NCBI GenBank assembly: GCA_017960525.1
Contig: JAGCZA010000005.1
Span: 29,051-93,050, forward strand
Source: Prevotella sp.
GTDB lineage: Bacteria > Bacteroidota > Bacteroidia > Bacteroidales > Bacteroidaceae
Length of the DNA stretch: 64,000 bases
Reading direction: 5' to 3'
Positions 18,371 to 24,049 of the stretch are shown in pieces (the stretch's first letter is position 1; each line of letters opens with the position of its first letter). A model generated the notes under the pieces. The model worked only from the letters and a program-made list of their open reading frames with translations, had not been told where the DNA came from and did not search any database. The position numbers and the translations under genes were made by a program.

Positions 18371-19150
18371 TCACTTCAGGCCGGCCTTCAAGCCTCGGAT
18401 GACGGCGGAGGTGAAGCCGGCGTGTTCCATCTCGTTGAGGCCCTTGATGGTGACGCCCTGCGGGGTGGTCACCAGGTCGATGGCGGCCTCGGGGTGGAGG
18501 CCCGTGTCGGTGAGCAGTTCAATGGCACCGCGCAGCGTCTGGAGCACCACCTTTTTGGCATCGTCGGCCTTGAAGCCCAGTTCCACGGCACCCTCGCTCG
18601 ACGCACGTATGTAGCGCATAGCGTAGGCGATACCGCAGGAGGCCAATGTGGTGCCAGCGGCCAGATGGGCCTCGTCGGTGATGAGCGTGCCGCCCATCTC
18701 GTTGTAGATGTCGAGCACGGTCTGGGTGTCCTTCTCCGAGGCACTGACGGGCACGATGAAGGTCATTGAAGCCATCTGGGCGATGGCGATATTAGGAATG
18801 ACAAGGAACAGCGGCGGACAGTTCAGGCCCAGCCATTCCTCAATACTGGCCGAGGCCACGCCGGCAGCCACCACGATGAGTATCTGGTTCTGCGGCACCA
18901 GCACGGGACGTATCTGCTTGAGCACGGTCTCCACCAGCCACGGCTTCACCACCACCACCACAATGTCGGCAGTAGCAGCAGCCTCGCTGTTGTTGGTCGT
19001 CACGTTGACGCCCATCTTTTTGAACTTGTCGAGCACCGCCTTGTTAGGGTCGGCCACGGTGATGTCATTGTTATTGAAATGGGTACCCCTGACGAGGCCC
19101 TCAACGGTGGTGCCACCCATAGCACCAGCGCCTATCACGCAAATCTTCAT
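18371..19150 (-). CDS. proC: Pyrroline-5-carboxylate reductase
   Basis: A 259-residue protein. The start is the ATG at 19150; an in-frame ATG eight codons upstream adds NYIYYKK before the Rossmann motif GAGAMGG and is less likely. The C-terminal region has the family substrate loop around DTGLHPEAAIDLVTTPQGVTIKGL. It reduces P5C to proline with NAD(P)H. In related Bacteroidales proC usually follows argD directly; here a restriction-modification island separates the two, with only 20 bp between the island's last gene and proC. Confidence 0.93.
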   Translation of the reverse strand: MKICVIGAGAMGGTTVEGLVRGTHFNNNDITVADPNKAVLDKFKKMGVNVTTNNSEAAATADIVVVVVKPWLVETVLKQIRPVLVPQNQILIVVAAGVASASIEEWLGLNCPPLFLVIPNIAIAQMASMTFIVPVSASEKDTQTVLDIYNEMGGTLITDEAHLAAGTTLASCGIAYAMRYIRASSEGAVELGFKADDAKKVVLQTLRGAIELLTDTGLHPEAAIDLVTTPQGVTIKGLNEMEHAGFTSAVIRGLKAGLK

Positions 19151-19170: not shown

Positions 19171-20250
19171 TCAACTCAAAGCAATATAGTGAATATACTC
19201 TGTGGTCTTATCACCCGCAATATGCCGTGTATCCGACTCGTTGTCAGCCTTAAAACGGCCATACTCTTGTTTGAAGCAACCATAGCGGCCACGCTCCTCC
19301 ATGATGGAGCGTATATCATCGAAGGTCATAAGCCCCTCATTATTGTAGCTCAGGAAGATGTAGTGGGCATCGACCTCCTGTATGAGCTGGCGAAATGCTT
19401 CCTTTACGCTACTCCGTGAACAGTATTGAGACCGCTGGCCCGAATAGTCACGCATACCTGTCTTGCCAGTTATCTGCGGACTGTCATAGAGGGCAATGGT
19501 TTCGAGCAGATGATAGTTGGCCGAATATTGCCGTTGGTTATATGGCGGGTCTAAGTAGAGTATGTCTACGTGCAGATGACGGGCCAGTTGATTAGCATCT
19601 TCATTATACACATAATGCTCCTGACCATTGTAAATCATTTCTGCCGGCTTCATAGTAAGCGGTTTCTGTGCAGACCGTTTAAGCCGTTTCAGGAATGCCC
19701 CATATACTGATGCAGTATTGGCCACACGGTCTATGCCCTCAATTAACGTCGCCAACAGAAAGAAATATTCGCCCTCGGTCAACTTGCCTTCTCCGCGCCA
19801 CTGCTCTATTTTCTGGCGTATGGCATCGCAGCGACCACCGTTATCATCGCTGAAGTACAGGCGGTAGTCCTCACCATCCTGATGACGCCCCTTGCAGTAA
19901 TTCTGATAGACGAAGCCCTCAATGGGTTTTAGGAAGTTGAGGTATTCACAAACTTTCGCACCACGCATATCATCAAAAAGCACATCACGTATCTGAGGAA
20001 TTTCCTCTTCCAGACCATGAAACATAAGTATCGTATGATTACCTATATACTGGCGGTTCAACACATAACTGTAGTACTGAAGGTCGTTGGCCGTTACTTG
20101 GTATCCTATCCGCTTAAAGTGACGCCCCACGGCTCCTGTTCCAGCAAACAGGTCGCAGAAGGTCTGTCCATCACGGTACGGCCCAGCTACTAAAGTGATG
20201 CTCCGCTCCAAAAACGGCAGAAGGGTATGCTTTGAGCCAATATAGTTCAT
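19171..20250 (-). CDS. D12-class adenine-specific DNA methyltransferase
   Basis: A 359-residue protein with the Dam/D12 layout: motif X at MNYIGSKHTLL, the SAM-binding motif I at LFAGTGAVG (34-42) and the catalytic DPPY at 234-237, followed by NQRQYSANYHLLETIA, a stretch common in D12 methylases of type II/IIS systems. It should place N6-methyladenine in one strand of a specific site. Its ATG overlaps the TGA of the upstream nuclease gene by 4 bp (ATGA), so translation is coupled. Its base composition is nearer to the host genes than that of the three AT-rich genes upstream. Confidence 0.88.
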   Translation of the reverse strand: MNYIGSKHTLLPFLERSITLVAGPYRDGQTFCDLFAGTGAVGRHFKRIGYQVTANDLQYYSYVLNRQYIGNHTILMFHGLEEEIPQIRDVLFDDMRGAKVCEYLNFLKPIEGFVYQNYCKGRHQDGEDYRLYFSDDNGGRCDAIRQKIEQWRGEGKLTEGEYFFLLATLIEGIDRVANTASVYGAFLKRLKRSAQKPLTMKPAEMIYNGQEHYVYNEDANQLARHLHVDILYLDPPYNQRQYSANYHLLETIALYDSPQITGKTGMRDYSGQRSQYCSRSSVKEAFRQLIQEVDAHYIFLSYNNEGLMTFDDIRSIMEERGRYGCFKQEYGRFKADNESDTRHIAGDKTTEYIHYIALS

Positions 20251-21392
20251 TGGTGAAAATTTATTTGGTTTGGCTGAGGATAATCATAATAGATAAACTT
20301 AAGAGACGACAAATTGGTCAATCCTTTGTACTTTGTAAATAGATCATTGGCGGCCAACTGTATTTTATGCGCAGAATTCTTTGGTAATCCTTTGGTCAAT
20401 AGTACAGGAACAATAAAACTGGGCTTATTGGGTATGTAATACTGTGATAGCCAGTCAATATATCTGTGCATTTGCAAAATGTCCTTTACTTTTGCTTTTT
20501 CATCTTTCAGTTCTATCACATAGAGTGTGGGTAGTTCTTCATTTGGCTTTTCTGTAGATATAACTATGTCCATTCTTTGCATACCTACGCCACAAGACAC
20601 TTCATTTCCAATCCACGCCACAAGTTCACCAGGAGAAAAGAGGGAAGTGTCCAACGAAGGACAAGTTCCGACACCCACGTTAGCAACCACGAATGCCTGC
20701 AAATGTGGCTCATGTGCTTTGTTATTAACATACCTGTCATATAGTCGCTGAGAAATATCTAACTGTGAACACAAATCAAAAGAATAAGGAAGTGTCTTAG
20801 TGGTCGATACAACACTATTTGATGTCTTGTCATAACTGAACCCGCCAGCATTTGAAAGAAAGGTTTCACTGTTTTTCATCCGTATTAGGCTTATTAATCT
20901 ATCAGCCTCATATGGTGTAATCATTGTGTTGCCACGGTTTCCCTTAAGCTTTCTATATATCAGGCTCCAAAGCATCTGGCAGGGAGAGGAAATCATTTTT
21001 ATCTCATCAAGAGCTTCCCATTCCGATACACCCTTTGAATATACCTTATAAGGCTCAATAAATGCCCGATACTGAAGATTCTTTGATATTTTTGGTGGAT
21101 ATTCCTTTTCCTTGTTGTCTACAAAAGGAACATCTTTTACTTTAAAAAGGCCAAAGAATCCACCTTCGTTTTTGGAAGTCTGTTGCAAATAGAAGATGAC
21201 ATAGTCGCCGACTCTCATCCTACTACAATCTGCCACCATCAATGCCTGACTACGTTCAGTGTTATGATTGGTAGTAATAGTAGTATAGCCGTTATTGAAA
21301 AGAAACCGATGACTGTTTCCTGTACCTATGAACATATATTCAAGATGCTCTTTGAACGTATCTTCATTTACTATGAGTATGTGAGTTGTCAT
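20247..21392 (-). CDS. Putative restriction endonuclease: EVE/PUA-like domain plus PD-(D/E)XK nuclease
   Basis: A 381-residue protein, AT-rich. Residues 1-130 resemble EVE/PUA-like folds by pattern: MRVGDYVIFYLQ followed by GGFFGLFKVKDVPF. Such domains bind modified bases, but this assignment is tentative. Residues 220-330 carry a NucS/DUF91-like PD-(D/E)XK core: Glu228, Asp275 in MQRMDIVI, Glu294-Leu-Lys296 in YVIELKDEKA, and Gln307 in QMHRYIDWL. It starts in a TAATG overlap with the HNH gene and ends in an ATGA overlap with the D12 methylase. It could be the main restriction enzyme, a second nuclease or an accessory specificity factor. Confidence 0.7.
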   Translation of the reverse strand: MTTHILIVNEDTFKEHLEYMFIGTGNSHRFLFNNGYTTITTNHNTERSQALMVADCSRMRVGDYVIFYLQQTSKNEGGFFGLFKVKDVPFVDNKEKEYPPKISKNLQYRAFIEPYKVYSKGVSEWEALDEIKMISSPCQMLWSLIYRKLKGNRGNTMITPYEADRLISLIRMKNSETFLSNAGGFSYDKTSNSVVSTTKTLPYSFDLCSQLDISQRLYDRYVNNKAHEPHLQAFVVANVGVGTCPSLDTSLFSPGELVAWIGNEVSCGVGMQRMDIVISTEKPNEELPTLYVIELKDEKAKVKDILQMHRYIDWLSQYYIPNKPSFIVPVLLTKGLPKNSAHKIQLAANDLFTKYKGLTNLSSLKFIYYDYPQPNQINFHQ

Positions 21393-22081
21393 TATTCGTC
21401 TGGATAAAGTTTCTTCATTATAAAGTCTGAAGTATGCTCCGCTGCTTCTTTGCTTATTCGCCTTACCATAGATTTCCTGTATTCCACAGGGTCATACTGG
21501 TAGCAACCGACACAGCCCAGTTCCTCTGTATAGTGTTCGTCCCCCTCATAGAAAGGATAAGGATTGCCCTTTATATTTGTCGCCTCCCACCTCAAGTCAC
21601 TTGCCTTACAGGCCTTGCAAATTTGTCTCTTCACATCATTGGCAGCTTTGCACAAGGGCTGAAAATCCTCCAATCGCTGGGTAGCTATATCGGACACGCG
21701 CATATCATCCTTTCTACCGTCTTTATGGTCAACTTCTATGGAAGTATTTTCAGAAGTACCCCTTATTCCCAGCATAACACACTTCTGTTGGCGAATAACT
21801 TCTACTATGTCCTTACGAATAGCCTGATTGAAATGCCTTTTATTATTAAAGCCGACAAGCCTTATTCCATCAACTCTATTACCTGGTGTCTTATCTTTTC
21901 TTACTTCAACAATATATTTCTTTCTTAAAGCAGAGTTCCTCCTGCCCCAACTTAGGCCATTACCAAGAGACAACTCGGCATATTTACCAACAAATTCTGT
22001 GGTATATACCCAACGGCTTTCACCATTTTTGTTTGGGTGAGCCAGTTCAAGAAACAAGTCTACCTTTGATTTCTCCATCAT
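21392..22081 (-). CDS. HNH restriction endonuclease with zinc-binding cysteines
   Basis: A 229-residue protein. The nuclease core is at about 95-160: IEVDHKDGRKDD holds the catalytic Asp118-His119, QPLCKAANDVKR holds Asn148 and Lys151, and CxxC pairs at 155/158 and 190/193 (with Cys101 and Cys144 nearby) probably bind zinc. The N-terminal 90 residues look like a DNA-binding or specificity domain. The ATGATG start overlaps the TAA stop of the methylase gene by one base. HNH enzymes of this kind are common in type II and IIS restriction systems. AT-rich compared with neighbouring host genes. Confidence 0.82.
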   Translation of the reverse strand: MMEKSKVDLFLELAHPNKNGESRWVYTTEFVGKYAELSLGNGLSWGRRNSALRKKYIVEVRKDKTPGNRVDGIRLVGFNNKRHFNQAIRKDIVEVIRQQKCVMLGIRGTSENTSIEVDHKDGRKDDMRVSDIATQRLEDFQPLCKAANDVKRQICKACKASDLRWEATNIKGNPYPFYEGDEHYTEELGCVGCYQYDPVEYRKSMVRRISKEAAEHTSDFIMKKLYPDE

Positions 22082-22872
22082 TAAAACTCCTTTTTGAAAA
22101 CGAATATATATTCGTGCTTGAACAAATAATAATCACTCTTCATAGCACGATACTTCCAAATATTCTGCTGTCCAAGTTTTCCGCGATTCCCTTCAATGTT
22201 TTTCACTACGACCCCCTTCAACTTAACCTTGAAATTCTTTTTAATCATATACATAGTATAGAAACCAAGTGGTATAACCTCACTCTTTTTGTATACATCA
22301 CCCATAACAACGCTAAAATATTTTCCCTTTTCCAGACAGGGCAAAGCGTTTGCAAAAGCAGACTTTAGCTTATCAAGGAAAATAGTCAGGTCAGAAATGT
22401 TTGAAAGATCTTCCGCTTTATCAGAGAATTTCACTATATCCATATATGGCGGGTGAGCAATCAGGAAATCAGCATGCTCTTTTCTTGTCTTTTTCAGGCT
22501 TTGTGACATATATTCGGCAAACATTGTGCTATTCGTGACATCGCATTTGTTTACCACATAATTAATGCTCTTTGTATTTGCCATCCGCCCATTTACATAT
22601 TCTATGATTTCTTCATTAATATCAAATCCTATATAGTCGCGTTTCAGAGTTTCACATTCATATAGAGTAGTTCCGCTACCTGAAAACAACTCCAGTACAA
22701 GATCACCTTCACTGGTATATCGCCGTATGAGCTGATTCGGGATTTGAGGTATGAAATTGCCATGATAGACATTTGCATGCTTTCCGCTCTTATCCCTCTC
22801 AGTTATCATCCAAAGACTGTCCACATTTAGGTCAAGATCTTTCCAGTTGTCCTTTGAAACGAATTCGTTCAT
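22081..22872 (-). CDS. Site-specific DNA methyltransferase with HPPY motif
   Basis: A 263-residue protein. Motif X (NFIPQIPNQLIRRY, 39-52) leads into motif I, LELFSGSGTT (60-69), and the catalytic motif IV is HPPY at 140-143, with His in place of the more usual Asp, Asn or Ser. The order X-I-IV and lack of a long insert mark a compact N6-adenine or N4-cytosine methylase. It is the first gene of the four-gene overlapping island and clearly AT-rich. It lies 49 bp downstream of argD. Together with the D12 enzyme it gives two unrelated methylases, as in type IIS systems with asymmetric sites. Confidence 0.85.
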   Translation of the reverse strand: MNEFVSKDNWKDLDLNVDSLWMITERDKSGKHANVYHGNFIPQIPNQLIRRYTSEGDLVLELFSGSGTTLYECETLKRDYIGFDINEEIIEYVNGRMANTKSINYVVNKCDVTNSTMFAEYMSQSLKKTRKEHADFLIAHPPYMDIVKFSDKAEDLSNISDLTIFLDKLKSAFANALPCLEKGKYFSVVMGDVYKKSEVIPLGFYTMYMIKKNFKVKLKGVVVKNIEGNRGKLGQQNIWKYRAMKSDYYLFKHEYIFVFKKEF

Positions 22873-22921: not shown

Positions 22922-24049
22922 TTATAGCATCCTCTCCAAGCGACAGACGAACTCGTCGGCCAGGGCCTTCGAGAATGTCAGCGGGGGCAGCAGGCGCAGC
23001 AGATTGTCGCCCGAACAGCCGGTGAAGACGTGCTCGTCGTAGACCAGGCGCTCACGCACCGGCTTCTGCGGCACGGTCAATTCAATGCCAATCATCAGCC
23101 CACGGCCACGCACTTCTTTTATCTTTTCATTGTTCAGTCCCTTCAGCTTCTCCATCAGGTAGTCACCCACCACGCGGGCGTTCTCCACCAGTTGCTGCTC
23201 CTCCATCACGTCGAGCACGGCCAAGGCAGCCGCACAGGCCAGATGGTTGCCGCCGAAGGTGGTGCCCAACTGTCCATAGACGGGCTTGAACGCTGGCGAG
23301 ATGAGCACTGCCGACATAGGGAAGCCATTGGCGATGCCTTTGGCCACGGTGATGATGTCGGGACGTATGCCTAACCACTGGTGGGCGAAGAAACGGCCCG
23401 TGCGCCCATAGCCGCACTGAATCTCGTCGCAGATGAGCACTGCACCGTGTTTCTTGCAGGCGGCGGCGAGCTGCCGGGCAAACTCCGGCGTGGCCATGCG
23501 GATGCCGCCCACGCCCTGCACGCACTCCAGGATGACGGCGGCCACATCGCCCTGCTCCAGTTCGCGCTCCCAAGGCTCAATGTCGTTCAACGGCAGGAAG
23601 CAGGCGTGGCCGTTGTCGTTGATGGGGGCCACAATCTTGGGGTTGTTCGTCACCTCAACGGCCAGGCTGGTGCGACCATGGAAAGCCTTTTCGGACGACA
23701 GCACCCGCGTGCGCCCCGTGGTGAACGAGGCCAGCTTCAAGGCGTTCTCATTGGCTTCGGCACCGCTGTTCACCAAGAACAGCTGGTAGTCGTCGTAGCC
23801 GCTCGCACGCCCCAGGCGCGAGGCCAGTTCGGCCTGCAACGGGTTCTTCACCGAGTTGGAGTAGAAGCCCAATTGCTGCAACTGCTCCGACACCTTATTA
23901 ATATAATAGGGGTGGCAATGGCCGATGCTGATGACGGCGTGGCCGCCATAGAGGTCCAGGTACTCCTGTCCCTTCTCGTCCCACACCTTGCAGTCCCTGC
24001 CCCTGACAATGGTCACATCGAACAGGGGATAAACGTCGAATAGATTCAT
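22922..24049 (-). CDS. argD: Acetylornithine/succinylornithine aminotransferase
   Basis: A 375-residue class III PLP aminotransferase. The PLP lysine is in TVAKGIANGFPM, with LVNSGAEANENALKLA and LICDEIQCGYGRTG as further signatures. It makes N-acylornithine from the acyl-glutamate semialdehyde in arginine synthesis; Bacteroides use succinylated intermediates, so N-succinylornithine is the likely product here. Its promoter is at 24078-24109. The genes after it are the restriction-modification island and then proC, its normal neighbour. Confidence 0.9.
   Translation of the reverse strand: MNLFDVYPLFDVTIVRGRDCKVWDEKGQEYLDLYGGHAVISIGHCHPYYINKVSEQLQQLGFYSNSVKNPLQAELASRLGRASGYDDYQLFLVNSGAEANENALKLASFTTGRTRVLSSEKAFHGRTSLAVEVTNNPKIVAPINDNGHACFLPLNDIEPWERELEQGDVAAVILECVQGVGGIRMATPEFARQLAAACKKHGAVLICDEIQCGYGRTGRFFAHQWLGIRPDIITVAKGIANGFPMSAVLISPAFKPVYGQLGTTFGGNHLACAAALAVLDVMEEQQLVENARVVGDYLMEKLKGLNNEKIKEVRGRGLMIGIELTVPQKPVRERLVYDEHVFTGCSGDNLLRLLPPLTFSKALADEFVCRLERML

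What the first reader, a model, noticed from the sequence alone, without database searches (positions are those of the whole stretch)
19171..22872. Four-gene, fully overlapping restriction-modification island with two methylases and two nucleases
On the minus strand the order is HPPY methylase, HNH nuclease, EVE-like/PD-(D/E)XK nuclease, D12 methylase. The stop/start pairs overlap as TAATG, TAATG and ATGA, so translation is coupled throughout. Two unrelated methylases are typical of type IIS systems with asymmetric sites, but having both an HNH and a PD-(D/E)XK nuclease is unusual. It may be a type IIS system with an added nuclease or modification-sensing factor, or a fusion of two systems. 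The first three genes are AT-rich against the host background, and the island splits argD from proC, both signs of transfer.
Basis: partly seen in the sequence, partly recalled or inferred. Interest (0 to 1): 0.78.

Follow-up and report, generated by a model that had tools for sequence, protein, structure and literature searches.

The report
Doubly armed CATG restriction system
A horizontally acquired four-gene defence cassette seems to guard one short DNA word, CATG, with two unrelated methylases and two unrelated nucleases, one of which belongs to a nuclease class so far predicted to cut only modified DNA.

Summary
The four overlapping minus-strand genes are real: M1 (N6/N4 methylase), an IceA/NlaIII-type HNH nuclease, an EVE + NucS-like PD-(D/E)XK nuclease (here "EVEN"), and a D12 methylase of the HpyIM kind. 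They sit between argD and proC, which are adjacent in 28 of 29 relatives examined. The same order recurs in Bacteroidota, Treponema and Campylobacter; EVEN also occurs with M1, with D12, or with both but no IceA. In Helicobacteraceae, D12 genes 96% identical stand beside IceA in one genome and EVEN in another. CATG is depleted in the window genome (observed/expected 0.23; 15 same-genus controls 0.51-1.03) and in 14 four-gene loci (median 0.24; 33 controls 0.75). A 17-kb stretch of a genome with only EVEN and D12 found has 4 CATG where 60 are expected; four relatives without EVEN have 163 where 161 are expected. So this is most likely an orthodox type II system for palindromic CATG with duplicated arms, not type IIS, and EVEN a CATG nuclease rather than a type IV enzyme. 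Against: loci with M1-EVEN only avoid CATG weakly, five of 16 M1-EVEN-D12 loci not at all, so M1's target is less certain. No methylome, assay or structure was available.

The parts
22081..22872 (-). M1: N6_N4-type DNA methylase, 263 aa, motif I FSGSGTT before motif IV HPPY
   Evidence: Pfam N6_N4_Mtase 6.6e-21; PADLOC MTase_II 1.2e-77; HPPY invariant in 42 aligned members
21392..22081 (-). IceA/NlaIII-family HNH endonuclease, 229 aa
   Evidence: Pfam ICEA 1.1e-107 over 5-226; the only match in the held genome
20247..21392 (-). EVEN: N-terminal EVE domain plus C-terminal NucS-like PD-(D/E)XK nuclease, 381 aa
   Evidence: EVE 4.2e-5; profile hits to NucS 2vld 0.0045 and the UPF0310 protein PH1033 (1wmm) 0.024; E228, D275, E294, K296 invariant in 49 of 49
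19171..20250 (-). D12-class N6-adenine methylase of the HpyIM/'ulcer-associated' kind, 359 aa
   Evidence: MethyltransfD12 1.3e-47; some phage homologues annotated ulcer-associated adenine-specific methyltransferase; same family as D12 genes of IceA-D12 pairs; not compared with the HpyIM sequence itself
22922..24049 (-). argD-like flanking host gene
   Evidence: Adjacent to proC in 28 of 29 relatives
18371..19150 (-). proC-like flanking host gene (ATG start at 19150; the ORF tool lists TTG 19174)

Best explanation
An orthodox type II restriction-modification cassette for the palindrome CATG in which both arms are duplicated with unrelated enzymes. Inferred working: D12 puts m6A on CATG in double-stranded DNA, as HpyIM does. 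M1 gives a second, independent protection of the same site (another base, single-stranded or hemimethylated DNA, or backup, as DpnA stands beside DpnM). IceA and EVEN each cut unprotected CATG with different folds (HNH and PD-(D/E)XK) and can replace one another. Gene overlap probably couples translation of the four proteins. Shown here: gene content, overlaps, insertion site, modular co-occurrence, nuclease exchange beside one methylase gene, and CATG avoidance. Inferred: that each protein is active, that EVEN and M1 act at CATG, and what the EVE domain does.
For: CATG observed/expected in the window genome is 0.23 (476/2029 over 252 kb) against 0.51-1.03 (mean 0.76) in 15 same-genus genomes without EVEN, and 0.56-0.80 in five genomes near it by ArgD that lack the cassette at argD-proC. 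Fourteen four-gene loci: median 0.24 against 0.75 in 33 controls, Mann-Whitney 4e-7; the next palindrome reaches only 0.05. Positive control, a Helicobacteraceae genome with IceA-D12: 5/432. Combinations found: IceA-D12, M1-IceA-D12, M1-EVEN, EVEN-D12, M1-EVEN-D12, M1-IceA-EVEN-D12. L046 D12 beside EVEN is 96.0% identical over 1028 bp to L147 D12 beside IceA, the match ending within 15 bp of the gene's ends. G695: EVEN-D12, no IceA found, no M1 found; its 17-kb locus has CATG 4/60 against 163/161 pooled (0.64-1.29 singly) in four same-family genomes without EVEN. All 62 EVEN loci over threshold have a methylase gene, or its tail, in the cluster. Orthodox type II sites are often avoided, type IV sites mostly not (PMC4687349 abstract).
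Against: M1-EVEN-only loci avoid CATG weakly (median 0.52 of 20; p 1.8e-3, while TATA scores better and GTAC about as well) and some not at all (L028 1.22, L040 0.97, L059 0.92). Of 16 M1-EVEN-D12 loci, five lie over 1.0. For 20 IceA-less D12 loci CATG ranks only fifth among palindromes (p 0.011). A four-gene Campylobacteraceae genome (G900) has CATG 0.61, rank 8 of 16, and three of the 14 four-gene loci lie at 0.50-0.77. One control without EVEN (G951) is as low as 0.40, and in the two Dehalococcoidia carriers GATC is lower still than CATG (0.06, 0.09). Avoidance can outlive a lost system (PMC4687349 abstract), and Helicobacter loci avoid many palindromes. MAGs are incomplete, so absence of a gene is not proof. 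No methylome, assay or structure (AF2 off).
Confidence: 0.75

Rival explanations
1. Two independent systems interleaved: IceA-D12 at CATG and M1-EVEN at another site, carried together by chance or linkage.
For: M1-EVEN without D12 or IceA in view at 23 of 62 EVEN loci (8 of them within 900 bp of a contig end), and such loci avoid CATG only weakly; IceA-D12 stands alone in Helicobacteraceae.
Against: EVEN with D12 and no M1 at five loci, all with the nuclease residues kept; nearly identical D12 genes beside either nuclease; G695 CATG 4/60; M1 kept with IceA-D12 where EVEN is missing.
Confidence: 0.13
2. EVEN is a modification-dependent (type IV) nuclease that rides with a CATG R-M system and cuts foreign modified DNA.
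For: EVE-PD(D/E)XK proteins were predicted as type IV (PMC7641849 section 9 read).
Against: A methylase gene in the cluster at all 62 EVEN loci, which a type IV enzyme does not need; it is tolerated with either methylase alone; CATG avoidance where EVEN is the only nuclease found.
Confidence: 0.08
3. Type IIS system with an asymmetric site, one methylase per strand, plus an added nuclease.
For: Two unrelated methylases.
Against: The palindrome CATG is depleted to 0.01-0.05 in six of 14 four-gene loci; IceA/NlaIII kinship.
Confidence: 0.02
4. EVEN is a repair nuclease serving the methylases (Vsr-like), not a restriction enzyme.
For: Nuclease domain nearest to NucS/EndoMS among solved structures.
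Against: The methylases are amino-methylases, which do not raise C-to-T deamination (established knowledge, recalled); IceA and EVEN replace each other beside D12.
Confidence: 0.02

Closest known systems
NlaIII / IceA1-HpyIM (CATG, type II)
   Same: ICEA-family HNH nuclease and a D12 methylase of the HpyIM kind; CATG avoidance
   Different: Adds M1 and EVEN; the window's D12 lies on the other side of a 100/99 split from the D12 genes of the Helicobacteraceae IceA-D12 pairs in the tree
C. jejuni ST-677 iceA1/hpyIM cluster with an 'orphan' methylase (PMC4658567 and PMC4687069 passages)
   Same: Another methylase, an IceA homologue and an hpyIM-type methylase in one cluster
   Different: The passages seen name no second nuclease; locus-tag gaps leave room for one, not checked
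DpnII (DpnM, DpnA, DpnB; GATC)
   Same: Two different methylases serve one palindrome (PMC3573125 passages)
   Different: One nuclease; other site; DpnA acts on single strands, untested for M1
EVE-PD(D/E)XK putative type IV nucleases (PMC7641849 section 9)
   Same: Domain architecture
   Different: Clustered with methylases at every EVEN locus over threshold here, and linked to CATG avoidance

Membership tests
NlaIII/IceA-HpyIM type II R-M (CATG) | ICEA-family HNH endonuclease | tested here: met
   Pfam ICEA 1.1e-107
NlaIII/IceA-HpyIM type II R-M (CATG) | D12 methylase of the HpyIM kind in the same cluster | tested here: met
   by family and partners, not by comparison with HpyIM itself; in the window EVEN lies between IceA and D12
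NlaIII/IceA-HpyIM type II R-M (CATG) | CATG as target | tested here: inconclusive
   Indirect support: avoidance 0.23 against 0.51-1.03, 0.18 without the island against 0.56-0.80; no methylome
NlaIII/IceA-HpyIM type II R-M (CATG) | Cleavage and methylation activity | not testable with these tools
   needs methylome or assay
DpnII-like two-methylase system | two different amino-methylases on one palindrome | tested here: inconclusive
   Both present; M1 target inferred only
DpnII-like two-methylase system | second methylase acts on single strands | not testable with these tools
   assay needed
Type IV EVE-nuclease | EVE plus PD-(D/E)XK architecture | tested here: met
   EVE and NucS_C each reported in 15 of 49 members at E 0.01, weak
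Type IV EVE-nuclease | Works without a cognate methylase | tested here: not met
   By association: a methylase gene, or its tail, in the cluster at 62 of 62 loci; activity untested
Type IIS | asymmetric site | tested here: not met
   palindrome CATG avoided; indirect

The most novel reading that the evidence does not exclude
The EVE domain makes EVEN a CATG nuclease that reads the chemical state of the site, cutting CATG whose bases carry foreign modifications that block the HNH enzyme, so the cassette closes the escape route by which phages with modified DNA pass a single-nuclease system.
Probability: 0.2. Interest if true: 0.8.

Novelty: new variant of a known kind. Interest (0 to 1): 0.6.

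Why it matters
It gives a family of EVE-PD-(D/E)XK proteins, an architecture so far predicted to be modification-dependent, a concrete and testable target (unmethylated CATG), and an unusual design: two unrelated nucleases and two unrelated methylases, interchangeable over one four-base word. That makes it testable why bacteria would keep redundant restriction arms, and what an EVE domain does in a type II enzyme.

Tried and rejected
Type IIS: rejected on CATG avoidance. A simple Markov score for CATG was dropped as the main measure because depletion of GATC distorts the CATG expectation; a quasi-independence fit leaving out palindromic cells was used instead. A model in which EVEN cuts DNA that carries only D12-type, or only M1-type, methylation sits badly with hosts that carry EVEN with that one methylase. 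Plasmids and phages: EVEN in 0 records; IceA in 1 plasmid record and 0 phages. Paper search for 'EVE domain' + 'CATG' + 'restriction' gave one preprint, on a cell-division protein (listing only). The iceA1 paper is not held. Pairwise-identity correlations between the four genes were 0.46-0.77 and decide little.

Left out of the avoidance counts: the four-gene set is 14 of the 16 IceA+EVEN loci (L005 and L019, cut by contig ends, out) and omits L135/G900, told separately; the M1-EVEN set is 20 of 23 (L042, L062, L067 out), and L028 and L037 in it end just after EVEN, so a D12 could be cut off; the EVEN-D12 set is 4 of 5 (L052 out); 7 of 20 Dehalococcoidia control stretches under 7 kb were dropped. 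Two loci counted as IceA-less hold a distant HNH enzyme (L021, L035). One search counts whole loci, one search leaves out the cassette. Of the 33 controls, 28 were searched for EVEN and lack it; five were only shown to lack the cassette at argD-proC. Controls come from two clades, plus four stretches from the family of G695.
Full report
WHAT IS THERE. Four minus-strand ORFs overlap by 1, 1 and 4 bases. Pfam names them N6_N4_Mtase (M1), ICEA, EVE (plus a weak NucS_C signal) and MethyltransfD12. PADLOC recognises both methylases but gives no confident call for either nuclease. In EVEN the PD-(D/E)XK residues E228, D275, E294 and K296 are the same in 49 of 49 aligned members. The EVE and NucS assignments are weak one by one: each was reported in 15 of 49 members at E 0.01, and a 49-sequence profile finds NucS 2vld at 0.0045 and the UPF0310 protein PH1033 (1wmm) at 0.024.

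ISLAND. The first three genes are AT-rich and D12 less so. argD and proC touch in 28 of the 29 relatives given loci. EVEN was found in 1 of 120 genomes of the genus, the window's own, and in 3 of 301 in the family sample, the window's own included. So the cassette was most likely inserted between argD and proC.

ELSEWHERE. One scan of genome contigs with the EVEN alignment gave 62 loci, and one of viral contigs gave 2. Of these 64 (genes within 6 kb): M1-EVEN 23 (8 within 900 bp of a contig end), M1-EVEN-D12 16, M1-IceA-EVEN-D12 12, M1-IceA-EVEN cut by a contig end 2, EVEN-D12 4, D12-EVEN 1, shuffled four-gene orders 2, EVEN without M1, IceA or D12 over threshold 2, and EVEN itself under threshold 2. 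Of the two without them, L065 has an M1 tail at its contig end and L068 a different N6 methylase gene upstream. IceA occurs at 16 of the 62 loci with EVEN, always with M1. In C. volucris (L058) EVEN is split over two ORFs. No IceA was found in 20 of 20 M1-EVEN genomes or in 12 of 12 other IceA-less carriers; the tool warns that its control genomes did not ring in those calls, though the same model finds IceA in 30 of 119 genomes of a Helicobacteraceae sample. Helicobacteraceae and Campylobacteraceae hold IceA-D12 pairs and M1-IceA-D12 triples.

EXCHANGE. L046 (Helicobacter sp.) has EVEN-D12; L147 (G720, drawn from the family of H. mesocricetorum) has IceA-D12. The two D12 genes are 96.0% identical over 1028 bp and the match ends within 15 bp of the gene's ends. 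L054/L148 show the same at 84%. L014 and L044 are syntenic over the region, without and with IceA. In the D12 tree a 19-row clade (window, L006 and L057, which have IceA, and 16 rows without it) is split at 100/99 from the 31 rows that hold the IceA-D12 pairs and the other four-gene systems, so D12 seems to have been exchanged too.

TARGET. If the enzymes act at one site, carriers should avoid it; orthodox type II sites are avoided in about half of 1774 studied cases, type IV sites in few (PMC4687349, abstract and outline). Window genome: CATG 0.23, controls 0.51-1.03; window without the island 0.18, five genomes near it by ArgD 0.56-0.80. Four-gene loci: median 0.24 against 0.75, p 4e-7, six of 14 at 0.05 or less and three at 0.50-0.77; the four-gene Campylobacteraceae genome G900 is at 0.61, rank 8. 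EVEN-D12 loci: 4 of 4 at 0.10 or less, three of them Helicobacter, whose loci avoid several palindromes as strongly. G695 is the cleanest case: no IceA or M1 found in the held genome, CATG 4/60 and the lowest of 16 palindromes, against 163/161 pooled from four same-family genomes without EVEN (0.64, 1.00, 1.07, 1.29). M1-EVEN-only carriers: two Dehalococcoidia at 0.40 and 0.35 against a control mean of 0.81 (13 controls, 0.40-1.07), but other such carriers range to 0.90, and over 20 loci TATA does better than CATG and GTAC about as well. Five of 16 M1-EVEN-D12 loci show no avoidance, which may mean recent arrival or a different target.

READING. EVEN is kept with D12 and no M1, and with M1 and no D12, so either methylase seems enough to protect from it. 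Since D12 is of the CATG-methylating HpyIM kind, EVEN's target should be blocked by CATG methylation, and M1 should then protect CATG too. The last step is the weakest. IceA1 with HpyIM at CATG is literature (PMC4450513 passages). A cluster of iceA1, hpyIM and an orphan methylase was described in C. jejuni ST-677 (PMC4658567 and PMC4687069 passages); the passages name no second nuclease. DpnII shows that two methylases can serve one palindrome (PMC3573125 passages). That PD-(D/E)XK and HNH enzymes may differ in inhibitors, which could make redundancy useful, is a guess, not tested here.

LIMITS. No structure prediction, no methylome, no REBASE. Controls are few and clade-limited. That I saw no paper describing EVEN as a CATG enzyme rests on the searches in an open-licence library only.

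Noticed in passing
L135:3021-3242 (-), L058:7777-7998, L054:7769-7999, L046:141-395: A small conserved zinc-ribbon-like protein (73-84 aa) stands directly upstream of EVEN in these four Campylobacteraceae and Helicobacter loci; it resembles the N-terminal part of another HNH restriction enzyme family (L116, L035, L021). Perhaps a regulator or a split-off specificity domain.
   Followed up: partly
L035:7069-7743, L021:7595-8242: A second, distant HNH restriction enzyme (PADLOC REase_II PDLC03537) sits inside the M1-EVEN-D12 cluster (L035) or just downstream of M1-EVEN (L021), so the extra-nuclease slot appears to have been filled more than once.
   Followed up: partly
L009, L010, L012, L021, L025, L041, L055, L056, L059, L060, L067: In these 11 M1-EVEN loci M1 is 378-392 aa, with an N-terminal extension of roughly 115 aa; none of the M1 genes seen beside D12 is that long.
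   Followed up: no
L068:3665-6873: EVEN on a viral contig follows a gene with HSDR_N and N6_Mtase domains instead of M1 or D12.
   Followed up: no
L071-L075: Distant IceA homologues on five viral contigs; in three of five the gene just upstream has weak similarity to M1.
   Followed up: no
G951 (L248): A Dehalococcoidia-family control without EVEN avoids CATG (0.40) and GATC (0.07) as strongly as the carriers; perhaps another or a lost system.
   Followed up: no
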